DNA of 64,000 nucleotides, from positions 62,001 to 126,000 of the forward strand of contig JBBELK010000936.1 in NCBI GenBank assembly GCA_037783545.1. The letters are read 5' to 3'. Positions 10,030-63,130 of the stretch are shown one piece after another; within the stretch, counting starts at the first letter, position 1; every line of letters starts with the position of its first letter. The translations under genes and the position numbers were made by a program. The notes beneath the pieces were generated by a model, which saw nothing but the letters and a program-made list of their open reading frames with translations, made no database searches and was not told where the DNA came from. Source of the DNA: Henricia sp. BOLD:AAB3569. Taxonomy: Eukaryota > Echinodermata > Asteroidea > Spinulosida > Echinasteridae.

Positions 10030-10105
10030 AGTGCAATGATTCGCTTTACAGTCACTTCGCCCCATACCACTTCGACCCATTACCACTTCGCCCCGCCACA
10101 ACTAC
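10030..10105 (-). repeat. GGGCGAAGTGG block, left inverted half
   Basis: Three tandem copies of a ~16-bp motif, read here as CACTTCGCCCCAT / CCACTTCGACCC / CCACTTCGCCCC. The complementary orientation lies at 11036-11120. Confidence 0.6.
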
Positions 10106-11035: not shown

Positions 11036-11120
11036 ACCATCAGGAAGTGGTAATGGGGCGAAGTGGCATTGGGCGAACTGACATGGGGCGAAGTGAAAAC
11101 GGGACGAAGTGACCGACATC
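11036..11120 (+). repeat. GGGCGAAGTGG block, right inverted half
   Basis: Tandem GGGGCGAAGTGGCATT, GGGCGAACTGACAT, GGGGCGAAGTGA and GGGACGAAGTGA, in inverted orientation to 10030-10105. Together they flank the LINE fragment. Confidence 0.6.
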
Positions 11121-11440: not shown

Positions 11441-11884
11441 TTGCGGCCAAGCTTATACTTTTAAAATCCAACCTCCGATAACCATGGTCGTATAGTATAC
11501 AATATTTATTTGTTTACTCAATTGACAACATCTTCAACGACGCAAATTATACAGATTTGATGTGCAGATAAAGGTAATATGTACAACATTCGCAAACATT
11601 CGACAACCGATTGGTCATGTTATTGTGCAAAAAGCTCGTTCGATTATGAACTCTTGCCTCAGCATGCTTTGCCAATGGGCGCGGTACTGCCATTTTAGCC
11701 CAACGCTATGGTGCAAAAAAAATGGCAAAAGGCACTTTTGGTATTGCCCCGTTTCATAGCGCTAATCCAAAATGTCAACACAATTACGTAACAAAACGTT
11801 TTCACCAGCGCTTCGTTTGGTAGATATGTACGCGATACAGTACCATGAAACAAATGCAAAATTGCGTTCCTTAGTTTGTTTTAC
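11441..11884. other. Gene-free stretch
   Basis: No supported feature. Confidence 0.4.
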
Positions 11885-11887
11885 ACT

Positions 11888-12015
11888 GTACCTTCTGGCT
11901 CAGCTAGTAGAGCATCTGCCCGGTGATCCAGACGTCTTGGTTTTGAATCCTGATAAGGCCTGTTGTGATTTTCTCTCATCCCATAGTGTGGTTCAATAGT
12001 ATGAAATAGGGATAC
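11888..12015 (+). mobile_element. tRNA-derived SINE, family 2
   Basis: A box TGGCTCAGCTAGTAGAGC near 11896 and B box GGTTTTGAATCC at 11939-11950, then a body with GATAAGGCC and GATTTTCTCTCATCCCATAG. The same body follows the B box of the SINE at 42.5 kb. The head matches the unit of the satellite at 20.6 kb. Confidence 0.8.
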
Positions 12016-13617: not shown

Positions 13618-13865
13618 GCCACCAAGCGTCTCAAAAGTCTCTCATCGGCTTCGTGTAACACGAATCATGTTGAAATAATGACTTGGAGATACTGCGGTTG
13701 TTCCAATAATGCATCGAATTTTCACGATTTGATGAGGTACAGAAAAAAAGCTACAGCATCTGCCTATAGTTATCATATTCCGGTGTAAAAGGTTAGTCTG
13801 TCCCCACTGGTATAATTGTGTCCCCCGGGCACGTTTACCAGGATGCAATCCGGTAAATGTGTAAG

Positions 13866-14040
13866 GGGGGGGGGGGGTGGGGTGGGGGGGGGGGGGGGGG
13901 GGGGGGCGACAAATTTACCTAAATAAATCTGACCCCCAACCCCGCCTCCGCCCCCCACCACCCCCCCCCCTAGTTTAATCTGTCCCGTGCCCAACGGTAA
14001 ATGTGCACCCCTCCCCTCCCCCAGTGAAAGTGTCCCCCCG
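13866..14040. repeat. G- and C-tract cluster
   Basis: Runs of up to about 20 G, then C-rich DNA, between repeats of GGTAAATGTG. Exact tract lengths are probably unreliable in the assembly. Confidence 0.7.
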
Positions 14041-17984: not shown

Positions 17985-18018
<34 letters not shown>

Positions 18019-18055
18019 ACCCCCCCCCCCCCCCACCCCACCCCCCCCTTTTATC
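17950..18055. mobile_element. One end of a hAT-like MITE with long C-tracts
   Basis: Begins CAGTGGCGGATCTGGAGGGG, a terminus like that of the hAT-type element at 28613, followed by poly-C tracts to 18048. No matching far end was found. Confidence 0.5.
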
Positions 18056-19890: not shown

Positions 19891-20600
19891 GGTACACCAG
19901 ACGCTGTGCACGCGAAACACGAAAAAGGGTAATTGTTATATTGGATTCACCACATCAAAAGTCATAATAAATAGTACATTTCATCTCTGAAATACATGTA
20001 GGCCTATACAACGTCTTTTTAAAAAAAGTAGACCAGTGTAATTTATGCCAATGCTTTAGGTCTGCCGAGCATCTATAAACCAAAAACAAAAACTCTACAT
20101 TGCTTCTGGTGAAATACAAGCAAACCAAGTAAAGGGAACCAACTACGCGAAAAAAATATACACACACGATCATTATGCAAAGGCAAATAAAGTATCCCAG
20201 TGAAATCTTAGTTGTGGGCACGCTCGCTGTCTCTCTTCAGGTCAAACTGAAATGAGAACCTGTAGACAGATACCCGTATGGTTGTTACTTAATGAATATT
20301 TGATGTCCTGAACGTTTGATATGCCCACAAAAATTAAGTGGCGTGAAAGTTCCTTGCGGGATCAATTTATTTATTCCATGTAACTGCCCAGGTATGCACA
20401 AACAGTTAACAACCACTGACCTATGTACACTGTGGACTGGTAGCGACTTTCGAAAGATACAACCGTCCGCCATCTTAATATAGACAAAGACAACGCTTTG
20501 TAGAGACTGGTTATATAGACCGTATCGAATAGCTGCCATCTAGTATTGGCAACCTTTGTTGTTTAAATTACATGTAGTCAACAATGTAAGCGCAAAAGGT
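19891..20600. other. Gene-free stretch
   Basis: No gene recognised. ORFs are short and unlike any family known to me. Confidence 0.4.
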
Positions 20601-23185
20601 GAGATAAGAGGCACGGTGGTATACTCCCTCAGGTTCCACTGAGACCTCTGACACACCGGATAGATGCTCTACCAGCTGATATCAAATGCACGGTAGTATA
20701 CTCCCTCACGTTTTCCCTGAGACCTCTGACACACCGGACAGATGCTCTACCAGCTGAGATAAGATGCACGGTGGTATACTCCCTCAGGTTTTTCCTGAGA
20801 CCTCTGAAACACCGGACAGATGCTCTACCAGCTGAGATAAGATGCACGGTGGTATACTCCATCAGGTTTTTCCTGAGACCTCTGACACACCAGACAGATG
20901 CTCTACCAGCTGAGATAAGATGCACGGTGGTATACTCCCTGAGGTTTTTCCTGAGACCTCTGAAATACCAGACAGATGCTCTACCAGCTGAGGTAAGCGG
21001 CACGGTGGTATACTCCCCCAGGTTTTTCCTGAGACCTCTGAAACACCAGACAGATGCTCTACCAGCTGAGATAAAATGCACGGTGGTATACTCCCTCAGG
21101 ATTTTCCTGAGACCTCTGACACACCAGACAGATGCCCTACTAGCTAAGATAAGCGGCACGGTGGTATACTCCATTAGGTTTTTCACGAGACCTCTGAAAC
21201 ACCAGACAGATGCTCTACCAGCTGAGGTAAGCGGCACGGTGGTATACTCCCTCAGGTTTTTCCTGAGACCTCTGAAACACCGGACAGATGCTCTACCAGC
21301 TGAGATAAGCGGCACGGTGGTATACTCTCTTAGGTTTTTCCTGAGACCTCCGACACACCGGACAGATGCTCTACCAGCTGAGATAAGATGCACGGTGGTA
21401 TACTCCCTCAGGTTTTTCCTGAGACCTCTGAAACACCAGACAGATGCTCTACCAGCTGATATAAGCGGCACGGTGGTATACTCCCTCAGGTTTCCCTGAG
21501 ACCTCTGACACACCGGACAGATGCTCTACCAGCTGAGATAAGATGCACGGTGGTATACTCCCTCACGTTTTCCCTGAGACCTCTGAAACACCGGACAGAT
21601 GCTCTACCAGCTGAGATAAGAGGCACGGTGGTATACTCCCTCAGGATTTCCCTGAGACCTCTGACACACCGGACAGATGCTCTACCAGCTGAGATAAGAG
21701 GCACGGTGGTATACTCCCTCAGAATTTCCCTGAGACCTCTGACACACCGGACAGATGCTCTACCAGCTGAGATAAAATGCACGGTGGTATACTCCCTCAG
21801 GATTTCCCTGAGACCTCTGACACACCAGACAGATGCTCTACCAGCTGAGATAAGATGCACGGTGGTATACTCCCTCAGGTTTCCCAGAGACCTCTGACAC
21901 ACCGGGAAGATGCTCTACCAGCTGATATCAAATGCACGGTGGTATACTCCCTCAGGTTTCCCTGAGACCTCTGACACACCGGACAGATGCTCTACCAGCT
22001 GATATCAAATGCACGGTAGTATACTCCATCACGTTTTTCCTGAGACCTCTGAAACACAGGACAGATGCTCTACCAGCTGATATCAAATGCACGGTAGTAT
22101 ACTCCCTCACGTTTTTTTCTGAGACCTCCGACACACCAGACAGATGCTCTACCAGCTGAGATAAGATGCACGGTGGTATACTCCCTCAGGTTTCCCTGAG
22201 ACCTCTGGCACACCGGACAGATGCTCTACCAGCCGATATCAAATGCACGGTAGTATACTCCCTCACGTTTTCCCTGAGACCTCTGGCACACCGGACAGAT
22301 GCTCTACCAGCTGATATCAAATGCACGGTAGTATACTCCCTCACGTTTTTCCTGAGACCTCTGACACACCGGACAGATGCTCTACCAGCTGATATAAGCG
22401 GCATGGTGGTATACTCCCTCAGGTTTTCCTGAGACCTCGGACACACCGGACAGATGCTGTACCAGCTGAGATAAGATGCACGGTGGTATACTCCCTCAGG
22501 TTTTTCCTGAGACCTCTGAAACACCAGAAAGATGCTCTACCAGCTGAGGTAAGCGGCACGGTGGTATACTCCCTCAGGTTTTTCCTGAGACCTCTGAAAC
22601 ACCAGACAGATGCTATACCAGCTGATATAAGCGGCATGGTGGTATACTCCCTCAGGTTTCCCTGAGACCTGTGACACACCGGACAGATGCTCTACCAGCC
22701 GAGATAAGATGCACGGTGGTATACTCCCTCAGGTTTTCCCTTAGACCTCTGACACACCGGACAGATGCTCTACCAGCTGAGATAAAATGCACGGTGGTAT
22801 ACTCCCTCAGGTTTTTCCTGAGACCTCTGACACACCAGACAGATGCCCTACCAGCTAAGATAAGAGGCACGGTGGTATACTCCCGCAGGTTTTCCCTGGG
22901 ACCTCTGACACACCAGACAGATTCTCCACCACCTGATATAAGAGGCAATGGTATACTCCCTTATGTTTTCCCAGAGACCTCTGACACACCGGGAAGATGC
23001 TCTACCAGCTATGCGGCACAGTGGTATACTCCCTGCAGGTTTTTCCCAGACCTATAAAAAAAAGGAGATACTTTACCTGCTGAGCCATGAGGCAAAGTAG
23101 TATACTCCCTCATTGTTTCCCAAAGACCTCTACCACACCAGGCAGATGCTTTACTATGAGGCACAGTGCACTCCCTATCAAAGTG
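20601..23185 (-). repeat. 78-bp satellite derived from a tRNA-SINE head, ~33 units
   Basis: On the minus strand each unit reads CTCAGCTGGTAGAGCATCTG, TCCGGTGTGTCAGAGGTCTC, AGG(A)AAAACCTGAGGGAG, TATACCACCGTGC. This matches the 5' head of the SINE at 42.5 kb (TGGCTCAGCTGTTGGAGCGT, CGGCCCGGTGAGTCAGAGGT) from its leader through the A box to just before the B box, where the next leader is joined. Each unit keeps an A-box-like sequence but has no B box. Units are about 76-78 bp and highly alike in the body. The right 250 bp is progressively diverged, while the left edge is sharp. Because 78 = 3 x 26, 26-residue repeat ORFs run through both strands; I do not regard them as genes. Confidence 0.9.
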
Positions 23186-23760
23186 GTATATTTTCCCTAT
23201 GAGTCCAACTCTACTCAAACTCGGTGCTGTAGGCAATATTTGTTATGGTGCATAATCAACATACAAATAAAGTAACCAATAACGGGATGAGAGAATAAAT
23301 TAAGTTGGTCCAATTATTGCCGTTTCAACGGGTATTTAGCTAGAGTGGTGTACCAGCAAAGTGGGCCGCACTAATGCAGCAGGGTCATGGTCAAGTTGAG
23401 TTCGATTATTTGGACAGGACGCTAGGGCTCCGACAACCACTTGCCGCTGAAACAACAGTGACTGCTGTATATACCCCCCAAAATGAGGGTTTTAAAATCA
23501 GCGATACTTACAAAATAAACCAGTACTTTTAACAATGTTTGATTTATTCTTTTAACTGTCCATCTTTCATATTTTGGTTTGGAAACGTATTCGCCTTTAC
23601 ACGGGAACACAAAAACAAGATGGCGACCTGCTACAACCAATTTGTTCAACTTACCATTTTGTTAATAATGGTGAATTTTTGTGAATTTTTTACCACATTT
23701 GTGAATTGCTCACAAAAGCAGTCAAAATATCACGTCCGATCTATTCACAAAAGTTACTTA
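23186..23760. other. Gene-free stretch between satellite and LINE
   Basis: No supported feature. Confidence 0.4.
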
Positions 23761-28093: not shown

Positions 28094-28401
28094 TGCACCT
28101 ATCAATTGTCCCCCCCCCCCCCCTACCCCTCCTAAGAGGTGGGGATTGTCACCTTTTTTGTCACAAAATCCACACCCCTGGAGCAACATTTAGGTGACAA
28201 AAATCCCCACCCTCGAGTGCAAAACATGAAAATATTATTTCAAAGGATCAAATGCCCCACCTTGGGGCATGAAAAACGTGACCAAACCCCCACATAGGGG
28301 TGGGGCAGCGCGGGGGAGGGGGGGGGGGGGGGGGGGAGGGGGGGGCCGAGAGGGGCGAGATGGGGGGTGGGGGGGGGGGGGGGAAACAACTGATAGGTGC
28401 A
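28094..28401. mobile_element. MITE, TAA target duplication (PIF/Harbinger-like)
   Basis: Ends TGCACCTATCAATTGTCCCC and, inverted, TGCACCTATCAGTTGTTTCC, both running into C-tracts. TAA flanks both sides (28091-28093 and 28402-28404). The 3-bp TWA duplication is the PIF/Harbinger habit. No coding; the interior holds G/C-tracts and GGGGCAT repeats. Confidence 0.65.
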
Positions 28402-28612: not shown

Positions 28613-29042
28613 CAGCGGCGGCGCTACGGGGGATGGGGGGGGGGGGGGGGGGGGGGGGGTGGGGGGGGGGGGGGGGGAATTCCCCCCCCCCCCCCCCAGT
28701 TATTTTGTTTGCCCCCCCGGTTTGCCCCCCCCCCCAGTTTTAAATTTGAGTTTAATCCCAAACCATTGCACCCAATTTGTTAAAATGTTGTTTGCGCTGT
28801 AAATAATAAACTCAATTTCATCAATCATAATTAGCTGGCACCATCAAAAAAGCCCAACACACTTTCGATAGATTTGCCAGGAAATACCCCCACTCAAGAA
28901 TAATGCTGGTGTAGTCCGTCAAAGTGGTAAGTCAATGCTTTTCTGCAGTACAAAATTACAGTATAGATTTTTGTTTGCCCCCCTAATTTTAAGTTTTCCT
29001 CCCTCTTGCTCCCCCAGATTAACAGGTCTGGTGCCGCCGCTG
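28613..29042. mobile_element. Non-autonomous hAT element with 8-bp target duplication
   Basis: Ends CAGCGGCGGCGCTACGGGG and, inverted, CAGCGGCGGCACCAGACCTG. Perfect 8-bp duplications CATGGAGG flank it at 28605-28612 and 29043-29050, the length produced by hAT transposases. About 430 bp, no ORF of note, with long G and C tracts including a G17-AATT-C16 palindrome at 28661-28697. Confidence 0.85.
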
Positions 29043-33590: not shown

Positions 33591-33949
33591 AGATAGTATA
33601 CATGATTAGTAAACTGTTACAAATAGTTTTATCCCCCTGTGTGATTGAAGATATGCATGATTAAAACCAACCTGAGCAAAAACCAGCTCCGTATACTTCG
33701 TCTAACTTTTGAGAAAACAGTCAAAAAAGGGTTTGCAGTCATTTCGCCCCGAAACCACTTCGCCCTGAACCACGGCCTGAGCACGAAGTGGTTTTGGGGC
33801 GAAATGGCACTTGGGCGAAGTGGTTTGGGAGCGAAATGGCAATTGGGCGAAATGGTTTTAGGGCGAATTGAATTTAAGTCTCGCGAGACGAAATATAATT
33901 GTTTTGCTCATTTCTCAAAAACTGTGAACATTTCTGATGTAGACTGCCT
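33591..33949 (+). mobile_element. TTAA MITE with internal GGGCGAAATGG block
   Basis: TTAA at 33587-33590 and 33950-33953 bounds 359 bp with ends AGATAGTATACAT and, inverted, AGGCAGTCTACAT. The first half matches the MITE A end (AAACTGTTAC, GTGTGATTGAAGATATG). The middle (33738-33876) is a foldback of tandem GGGCGAAATGG motifs. It is nested in the BEL/Pao element and closely related to 62601-63130. Confidence 0.75.
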
Positions 33950-42499: not shown

Positions 42500-42665
42500 C
42501 TGCAGACGATATGAATGTATATAGAGACCACCAAACTCGGCATGGGAGAAAATCGTAAGGGCCTTATCGAGATTCAAACCCGAGACCTCTGACTCACCGG
42601 GCCGACGCTCCAACAGCTGAGCCATGAGGCACAGTAGCACACTTCCTCGGGTTTTCCTTTGGACC
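42500..42665 (-). mobile_element. tRNA-derived SINE, family 2
   Basis: Minus strand: leader GGAAAACCCGAGGAAGTGTG, A box TGGCTCAGCTGTTGG (complement of 42610-42624), then GTGAGTCAGAGGTCTC and B box GGGTTTGAATCTCG (complement of 42568-42581), then GATAAGGCCCTTACGATTTT. Its head is the source type of the satellite at 20.6-23.2 kb. Confidence 0.82.
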
Positions 42666-43009
42666 CAATTGAATGTATAGAGACAGTCAAAAATAGTATA
42701 TTTTGGCTCGAATAAATGAAAAAGAAAGTCGGCCATCTTACGACACTGGGATAGTCTGGTTTCGGTGGCTTCAAGGGCACTTCTATGTTCTATGGGAAAA
42801 TTAAAAATCCAATATGTTTTTCTTCGGTGGACAATAAACTGGGGCAGTTTTCTCGTCTTGCCCCCAGACGTCAATGAGATGTTTAAAACAATCCTTTAAA
42901 AACAATGAATCCTAATTTTGAGAAATAAGATTCGTTTGGCGTTTAAAACCACTTTAAGCTATTTACGTCTATAGATTGATCACGTGAGTACAATGCATAC
43001 AACGTAATC

Positions 43010-62600: not shown

Positions 62601-63130
62601 AGATAGTATATACATGATTGGTAAACTGTTACAAATAGTTTTATCCCCCTGTGTGGTTGAAGATATGCATGATTAAAACGAACCTGAGCAAAAACCAGCG
62701 CCGTACTTCGTCTAACTTTTGAGAAAACAGTCAAAAAAGGGTTTGAAGTCATTTCGCCCCAAAACCACTTCGCCCTGAATCATTTCGCCCCGAACCACGG
62801 CCTGTGCACGAAGTAGTTTTGGGGCGAAGTAGCATTTGGGCGATGTAGTGTTTGGACTTTGGACGAAGTGATTTGGGGCGAAATGGCATTCAAGCGAAGT
62901 GGTTTGGGGGCGAAATGGCACTTGGGCGAAATGGTTTGGGGGAGAGTTGAATTTTCGTCTCATGAGACGAAAACTAATTGTTTTACTCATTTCTCAAAGA
63001 CAATAGCAATTCAGACAAAACCATTTCAGGGGAAGTTTTCTACGGTCATCATGTTTATATTGTTAAAGTTAGGCGTAAATCTGTGAACATTTCTGATTTT
63101 CGATATACATGTACCAATCATACACTGCCT
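62601..63130 (+). mobile_element. TTAA MITE with GGGCGAAATGG block, copy 2
   Basis: TTAA at 62597-62600 and 63131-63134. The first 150 bp are ~93% identical to 33591-33740. The middle (62750-62950) is an expanded block of GGGCGAAGTGG/GGGCGAAATGG repeats in two orientations around GGCCTGTGCACGAAG. The right inverted end is AGGCAGTGTATGATTGG. Confidence 0.78.

What the first reader, a model, noticed from the sequence alone, without database searches (positions are those of the whole stretch)
20601..23185. A satellite born from a tRNA-SINE head, one A box per unit
Each ~78-bp unit equals the 5' head of the SINE at 42.5 kb: leader, A box and the stretch to just before the B box. The B box is replaced by the next leader. 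The join sits where AACCTGAGG of the leader resembles the TCTCAGG before the B box, suggesting short-homology tandem duplication followed by homogenisation. About 33 A-box-like Pol III elements now lie in a row without B boxes.
Basis: partly seen in the sequence, partly recalled or inferred. Interest (0 to 1): 0.75.

Follow-up and report, generated by a model that had tools for sequence, protein, structure and literature searches.

The report
Satellite grown from a sea-star SINE
A 2.5-kb run of 33 similar 78-base repeats, probably in a sea-star genome, was copied from the front part of a tRNA-derived dispersed element, and similar runs occur at many other places in that genome, showing how dispersed elements can turn into satellite DNA.

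Summary
The array is real: 78 bp x 32.9 at 20600-23154, sense on the minus strand. It is not a lone locus. In this 740.7-Mb genome (probably a sea star) the unit joint occurs 12,802 times with up to 3 mismatches, reversed control 0. Of 45 sampled runs with visible 3' end, 26 run on past the B-box position. The source head scores as a tRNA; the array does not. Units tend to resemble their own locus: nearest neighbour local for 210 of 385, about 16 expected. One pair of otherwise identical copies differs by exactly two units. The window's A-box-altered form, at 0-1 mismatch, is listed only in this array.

Verdict: a SINE-derived satellite, a kind described in squamate reptiles (PMC10702118); a new member in another phylum. 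Two reader claims fail: the A box is altered in nearly all units here, and the joint's direct similarity lies elsewhere (leader TCTTAGGG, head TCTTGGG). Retrotransposition of the source is not shown.

The parts
20600..23154 (-). satellite array, 78-bp unit x ~33 (leader + A-box half of tRNA head, no B box)
   Evidence: TRF; unit extraction; no B box
23155..23232 (-). decayed first unit and SINE-type leader at the 5' end of the array (reads GTTGGACTCATAGGGAAAAT)
   Evidence: sequence; compared by eye with the leaders listed
23233..23298 (-). body of an upstream SINE-like copy, no head recognised, followed by the leader as in other loci
   Evidence: BLAST of the repeat consensus, positions 140-205; sequence
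20513..20601 (.). part of a short inverted-repeat element (MITE-like) abutting the 3' end of the array; no SINE body here
   Evidence: 75-82% matches to L042, L067, L100, L098, L032
42524..42670 (-). single-head SINE-like copy with leader, head and start of body
   Evidence: consensus 21-169; direct repeats at 42512-42525 and 42671-42684, 14 bp with 1 mismatch
11884..11993 (+). 5'-truncated single-head copy (end of leader, head, start of body)
   Evidence: 82% over 112 positions

Best explanation
A SINE-derived satellite, probably in a sea star. The source is a tRNA-derived, SINE-like repeat of about 230 bp (leader, tRNA head with A and B boxes, body). A 78-bp segment, from the leader's GAAAACC to about GGTCTT(A/G)G just before the B box, was duplicated head to tail; the joint falls where leader TCTTAGGG and head TCTTGGG resemble each other (the anatomy is shown, the mechanism inferred). 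A few-headed form was then spread to many places (inferred; several thousand loci by extrapolation). At many of these places the head run behaved as an ordinary minisatellite, gaining and losing units in blocks by unequal exchange or slippage (supported by local nearest neighbours, run-specific block periods, and one pair of copies differing by exactly two units). In the window the run appears refilled from one or a few units with an altered A box; the 5'-most units are the most divergent and keep an older form. Function: most likely none. The units lack a B box and here mostly an intact A box, so they should not recruit TFIIIC or start Pol III transcription (inferred from recalled knowledge of type 2 promoters).
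For: Array; unit = SINE 5' segment; head is tRNA-like (13 Rfam tRNA matches at E up to 1 in 16 loci that I chose, nine at or above the gathering score). Joint 12,802, B-box ends 6,164, leaders 1,942 matches, reversed controls 0. Of 57 runs of three or more units, 45 show their 3' end and 26 of these run on past the B-box position. Mean distance within loci 0.100, between 0.129; nearest neighbour local for 210.4 of 385 units, ties shared, about 16 expected. Seven runs tested at up to 12 lags: lowest-p periods of 2 units (L033, L034), 8 (L041), 6 (L089), 4 (L037). L077/L078 identical over 1,584 aligned bases but for 157 bp = two units. Window form: the 15 listed matches with 0-1 mismatch all lie in this array, the other 85 listed have 2; 5,831 matches in all with up to 3. 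Marker GTGTGTC in 277 of 364 units outside the window, GTGAGTC in 16, other 71; single heads carry GTGA in 12 of the 13 that could be classed, of 22 single-head rows.
Against: Direct repeats at the ends were found for 9 of 51 elements against 45 of 602 mismatched-flank controls, and two of the nine are the near-identical L077/L078, so retrotransposition of the source is not shown. The source often appears as a seamless head-to-tail dimer or permuted copy, unusual for a plain SINE. The window's own single copies do not reach Rfam's tRNA gathering score (0 matches). The joint cannot be fixed to the base; none that I see of the 100 exact leaders listed carries the TTCTTAGGG form that gives the best short homology; a crossover at the longer exact repeat TTGGGTTC left no product. 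Local homogeneity is uneven: L042, L047, L049, L083 and the twins L077/L078 have no local nearest neighbour, and in L047 units are further apart within (0.198) than between loci (0.156). Of four locus pairs aligned only one shows a clean unit-number difference (L081/L082 none, L075/L088 too different, L085/L086 share only 467 bp), and that one could be an assembly effect. The marker differs less clearly in the terminal heads (Fisher p 0.071, 0.023, 0.13 for three markers).
Confidence: 0.8

Rival explanations
1. A many-headed mobile SINE: elements with several heads are themselves transcribed and retrotransposed, so head number is inherited through transposition rather than grown in place.
For: One joint form is very common and 353 of 396 sampled unit lengths are 76-79, which points to one founding duplication that was then dispersed; multi-head units carry a marker rare in single heads; 26 of 45 runs run on past the B-box position into body.
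Against: Units tend to cluster by locus, and five of seven runs tested have their own block period; one near-identical pair differs in unit number; the window form is listed only here; no consistent target-site duplications. An A box and B box at normal spacing exist only in the last head, so a transcript should start there and lose the upstream heads (inference from recalled Pol III promoter architecture).
Confidence: 0.35
2. Independent satellite births: each locus made its own duplication of a resident SINE at the same short homology.
For: Other segments of the same repeat have made their own tandem arrays (22-bp array in L060, 17-bp array in L070), and L085/L086 hold an alternative joint TGGTTTCTTAGGG, so duplication within this element recurs.
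Against: One joint dominates among the sampled units; independent births would be expected to scatter breakpoints. Markers of multi-head units differ from those of most classed single heads.
Confidence: 0.15
3. Array of whole tRNA-like genes whose B box decayed: the 78-bp unit is a complete tRNA, the leader being its degenerate T arm and acceptor.
For: 78 bp is close to tRNA length; AAACCTGA matches AATCCTGA of the T arm at 7 of 8 positions.
Against: Leader within the unit against T arm: 475 of 2000 shuffles score as well (the longer leader does better, 65 of 2000, but through TTGGGTTC, which is not in the unit). The leader stands upstream of a tRNA-like head in single copies. No Rfam match in the array at E up to 1; no ARAGORN tRNA in the window.
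Confidence: 0.03
4. Functional Pol III / TFIIIC array (boundary element or small-RNA source) kept by selection.
For: In 343 units from other loci the A-box stretch is among the most conserved 12 bases of the unit (rank 3 of 78 windows, 96.1% against 93.5% overall).
Against: That ranking is biased because units were found by an anchor that covers most of the A box. The window array has an altered A box in nearly all units and no B box.
Confidence: 0.04

Closest known systems
SINE-derived satellites (sSat1-3) of squamate reptiles (Vassetzky, Kosushkin, Ryskov 2023, PMC10702118; outline, parts 1-3 of 5 of the text and the Discussion read)
   Same: Tandem units that are a segment of a tRNA-SINE, shorter than the SINE, often with a terminal unit that runs on to a SINE end; locus-specific variants and block periodicity; many loci in one genome; differing unit number between some matching loci.
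   Different: Other host phylum and other source repeat. The major snake unit includes box B and part of the body; here the unit is leader + A-box half and excludes box B. Subtelomeric preference was not tested here.
Tandem multimers of whole SINEs (Dip, B2; PMC8466645, passages seen) and dimeric SINEs (mentioned in PMC10702118)
   Same: Head-to-tail SINE units; the source element here also often occurs as a head-to-tail dimer.
   Different: Those repeat the whole element, up to eight units; here a 78-bp part repeats up to about 40 times in the sample.
tRNA-containing tandem families of amphibians (OAX/satellite I of Xenopus, Hy/polIII of Hydromantes, PolIII/TAN of Cynops, Rana/polIII; as described in PMC10702118, and partly in the table of PMC9659126, passages seen)
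   Same: Tandem repeats with a tRNA-related region.
   Different: Units of about 200 to 360 nt, longer for OAX, whose link to a SINE PMC10702118 calls inconclusive; here a source repeat lies in the same genome and in the same window.

Membership tests
SINE-derived satellite (sSat) | Head-to-tail array of a contiguous segment of a SINE, shorter than the SINE | tested here: met
SINE-derived satellite (sSat) | Source SINE dispersed in the same genome | tested here: met
   1,942 leader and 6,164 B-box-end matches with up to 3 mismatches, reversed controls 0; that the source is a true SINE is itself only partly shown, see below
SINE-derived satellite (sSat) | A terminal unit running on towards a SINE end | tested here: met
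   26 of 45 runs run on past the B-box position; 4 of these (L052, L061, L066, L069) came from a search with the body, so the share is biased upward. In the window only the 5' side runs on
SINE-derived satellite (sSat) | Local homogenisation, stronger in long arrays | tested here: met
   210.4 of 385 units have their nearest neighbour in the same locus (11 units in loci with fewer than four were left out); 37.5 of 40 in L033, 26.9 of 33 in L041, 29 of 32 in the window, but 0 in L042, L047, L049, L083, L077 and L078. Met overall, not in every run
SINE-derived satellite (sSat) | Heterochromatic or subtelomeric location | not tested
   contigs are unplaced
tRNA-derived SINE (source element) | tRNA-related head with A and B boxes | tested here: met
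   Rfam RF00005: 13 matches at E up to 1 in 16 chosen loci, nine at or above the gathering score of 29; none in the window itself at the gathering score
tRNA-derived SINE (source element) | Target-site duplications | tested here: inconclusive
   9 of 51 elements against 45 of 602 control pairs; elements near the ends of fetched stretches or under 90 bp left out; one convincing 14-bp pair at 42.5 kb
tRNA-derived SINE (source element) | Fixed 3' end, variable 5' end | tested here: inconclusive
   read by eye: 3' ends with body fall mostly in two zones, about 135-182 and 194-217 of the consensus, 5' ends are scattered; dimers and permuted copies occur
tRNA-derived SINE (source element) | Pol III transcription; LINE-related or simple-repeat tail | not tested
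   no RNA data; no LINE search made
tRNA gene array | Units fold and score as tRNA, with A and B boxes | tested here: not met
   0 Rfam matches at E up to 1, 0 ARAGORN genes in the window, no B box, A box altered

The most novel reading that the evidence does not exclude
A SINE lineage that lives with a built-in head minisatellite: a subfamily with duplicated promoter halves was itself mobile, seeded thousands of loci, and each seed keeps expanding and contracting, so that satellite birth in this genome is a by-product of transposition rather than a rare accident.
Probability: 0.4. Interest if true: 0.6.

Novelty: new member of a known kind. Interest (0 to 1): 0.45.

Why it matters
[quoted passage not shown] This genome shows the same process in what is probably an echinoderm, with single-head copies, runs of a few units and runs of 30-40 units side by side, so the steps from dispersed element to satellite could be ordered in one species. 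It also shows a promoter fragment being amplified and, in the window, losing its motif while the array is homogenised.

Tried and rejected
Chance similarity: rejected (shuffles; reversed-pattern controls of 0).

Leader as a decayed T arm: not supported.

Hammerhead or other known RNA in the source element: only tRNA matched at E up to 1 in the 16 loci given.

389-bp higher-order repeat in the window (second TRF row of the array): lag 5 not better than permuted order (p 0.18); only lags 1-4 are closer than permuted order.

Crossover at the 8-bp exact repeat TTGGGTTC: the predicted product has 0 matches with up to 3 mismatches.

Hairpin-driven expansion: as single-stranded DNA the window unit has z -1.19 and -1.32 for its two strands (26 and 20 of 200 shuffles as good), the genome unit +1.14 and +0.96; weak, not pursued.

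General target-site duplications: not shown. A first unit-extraction script missed most units because of its matching mode; its numbers are not used and one search replaces it.

Literature: searches found no paper; some searches listed 1, 4, 7, 15 (of 34) and 4 papers. In the titles and abstract starts shown I saw no report of SINE-derived satellites in echinoderms; the sea-star genome papers listed were not opened, and most subscription journals are not in that library.

Full report
What is there. Tandem Repeats Finder places an array of a 78-bp unit, 32.9 copies, at 20600-23154. Read on the minus strand, each unit runs from the leader (GAAAACCTGAGGGAGTATACC...) through the A-box half of a tRNA-like head to GAGGTCTC, just before where the B box would be. 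The unit aligns with the copy at 42.5 kb over both leader and head (58 of 74 positions for the window unit, 66 of 78 for the consensus of units from other loci, far above shuffles). No B box is found in the array with up to 3 mismatches.

Where it lies. The window is G000:C936:62001-126000 in a 740.7-Mb assembly of 2104 contigs. A cytochrome oxidase I search found mitochondrial contigs in which TGA is read through 11 times. Several codes give an open frame of the same length (tables 5, 9, 24; longer with 14); table 9 (echinoderm) puts asparagine where I recall it conserved, as in FSTNHKDIG. The tRNA order before COI (Leu, Gly, Tyr, Leu, Asn on one strand, Gln on the other) is that of sea stars as I recall it. 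So 'sea star' rests largely on recalled gene order, and the species is not known to me.

The source element. Single-head copies fetched by their exact leader (L113-L120, 8 of 20 asked for) and copies fetched by their body (L051-L070) share a unit of about 230 bp...TTTGCCCAGTTGCGCNACCATGCAACACCGAGAGAAAAATTGGGTYCWTAGGGAAAACC, tRNA head, B box, body ...CATCCCAAGTTTGGTTGTTTCATTTCAATGGTGATYAGGCACCATACCARATNTTG. Its head matches the Rfam tRNA model with up to 56 bits (13 matches at E up to 1 in 16 loci that I chose, nine at or above the gathering score); the window's own copies do not reach that score. Copies often run seamlessly from body into the next leader, as head-to-tail dimers or permuted copies; 5' ends are scattered, while 3' ends with body fall mostly in two zones. 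Direct repeats at the ends were found for 9 of 51 elements against 45 of 602 mismatched controls, so I call it SINE-like and do not claim that retrotransposition is shown.

How common the array unit is. The unit joint (AGAGGTCTTRGGGRAAACCTGAGGGAGTATACC, up to 3 mismatches) has 12,802 matches, head-with-B-box ends 6,164 and 5' leaders 1,942; reversed controls gave 0. These are matches, not loci; the mismatch limit loses diverged copies, and the assembly may hold both haplotypes. The 100 exact joints listed fall into 42 clusters by my count by hand, so several thousand loci is an extrapolation. Among 57 sampled runs of three or more units (from L031-L090, L093-L112 and the window), 45 show their 3' end and 26 of those run on past the B-box position; of 43 with a visible 5' end, 15 begin in the body or spacer of an upstream copy, 15 in the leader or at a unit start, and 13 elsewhere inside a unit. 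Sampling was by unit, body, leader or joint, so these shares are biased; four of the 26 came from the body search. Longest sampled runs by anchor count: L033 with 41 (cut by the end of the stretch), L041 with 34, the window with 33.

How the runs change. In 396 units from 42 runs, mean distance is 0.100 within and 0.129 between loci; the nearest neighbour lies in the same locus for 210.4 of 385 units (ties shared; loci with fewer than four units left out), with about 16 expected from the chance column. This is uneven: L042, L047, L049 and L083 have none, and the near-identical L077 and L078 have none, as expected if each unit's best match is in its twin. Seven runs were tested for block periods at up to 12 lags each: 2 units stand out in L033 and L034, 8 in L041, 6 in L089, 4 in L037; L039 and the window show none, though window neighbours at lags 1-4 are closer than permuted order. 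Of four locus pairs aligned, L077 and L078, on different contigs, are identical over 1,584 aligned bases except for 157 bp, two units; they may be two haplotypes or a recent duplicate, and an assembly effect is possible. L081/L082 show no unit difference, L075/L088 are too different to read, and L085/L086 share 467 bp.

The window array. Its units are the most distant from other loci among the loci with four or more units (0.186). Within the array the 5'-most units are the most divergent (median 0.24-0.28 for the first three against 0.08-0.14 for the rest) and still show the older form GCCTCATGGCTCAG, whereas the others carry forms such as TTATCTCAG, TTATATCAG, TTACCTCAG and TTGATATCAG. The pattern for the TTATCTCAG form has 5,831 matches with up to 3 mismatches; of the 100 listed, the 15 with 0 or 1 mismatch all lie in this array and the other 85 have 2. 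One or a few A-box-altered units thus appear to have refilled the array (inferred). A perfect A box occurs at one site, at the 5' edge, 19 sites have at most one mismatch, and 0 of 32 units have a perfect box, against 286 of 364 units elsewhere (consensus recalled). No Rfam family matches the array at E up to 1. The 3' end has no SINE body; it abuts part of a MITE-like element.

The joint. AACCTGAGG lies 3' of the joint and is the inverted partner of CTCAGG (hairpin), so it is not the direct repeat. At the joint, head GGTCTT|GGG and leader GTTCTT|AGGG share TCTT and GGG. Outside the window the joint forms include TTGGGGAAAA (61), TTGGGGGAAA (19), TTGGGGGAAAA (18), TTGGGGAAA (15), TTGGGAAAA (14), TCAGGGAAAA (13) and TTAGGGAAAA (8) (the loci found with the window unit may be enriched in TCAGGG). 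Four or more shared bases at a random break have a chance of about 1.6% (my arithmetic), so this is suggestive only; and the leaders listed read CCATAGGG or TTCATAGGG, which share less. The product of a crossover at the longer exact repeat TTGGGTTC is absent. L085/L086 hold an alternative joint.

One origin or many. Units outside the window carry GTGTGTC in 277 of 364 cases, GTGAGTC in 16 and something else in 71; single heads carry GTGA in 12 of the 13 that could be classed, of 22 single-head rows among 53. The terminal heads of runs differ less clearly (9 rows; Fisher p 0.071, 0.023 and 0.13 for three markers), and several single heads were chosen by their leader. With one dominant joint, this favours one founding duplication that was spread, then local growth. 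How a few-headed form spread is not shown.

Known kinds. SINE-derived satellites were described in squamate reptiles (PMC10702118; outline, parts 1-3 of 5 and Discussion read), whose authors found earlier amphibian cases inconclusive and left it uncertain whether such satellites are restricted to squamates. The arrays here meet the tested features of that kind, location not being tested. I therefore file the finding as a new member of a known kind, with a promoter-half unit in a new phylum.

Noticed in passing
window 20513-20601; L067, L098, L100; also L042 and L032: A MITE-like element (end TATAGACCGTATCGAATAGCTGCCATC) adjoins the leader of this SINE at GTA/TA in L067, L098 and L100, suggesting repeated insertion at the same TA; it also matches elsewhere in the stretches L042 and L032. 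Part of a copy borders the window array.
   Followed up: partly
L060 and L070: Other parts of the same repeat form their own short arrays: a 22-bp array of the head in L060 and a 17-bp array just after the B box in L070.
   Followed up: no
L075, L087, L088, L110: Long G runs have grown at the G stretch of the unit joint, so the joint may seed homopolymer expansion.
   Followed up: no
window 13865-13906, 17986-18048, 28312-28383, 28635-28677: Long G or C tracts: 42 bases at 90% G, 63 at 90% C, 72 at 73% G, 43 at 95% G (TRF match rates).
   Followed up: no
window 10053-10094, 11044-11111, 33784-33867, 62809-62942: Recurring 15-32-bp tandem repeats of the type CGAAGTGGTTTTGGGG at several places in the window.
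   Followed up: no
L035, L037, L046, L108 and window about 23298: These copies begin at almost the same place, just after the tRNA 3' end (consensus 132-140), as if cut by tRNA 3' processing; the sample is small and other copies begin elsewhere.
   Followed up: partly
G000:C955 and C2104: COX1 recurs three times on C955 at 16,221-base spacing, so the mitochondrial genome is assembled there in tandem, probably an assembly artefact.
   Followed up: no
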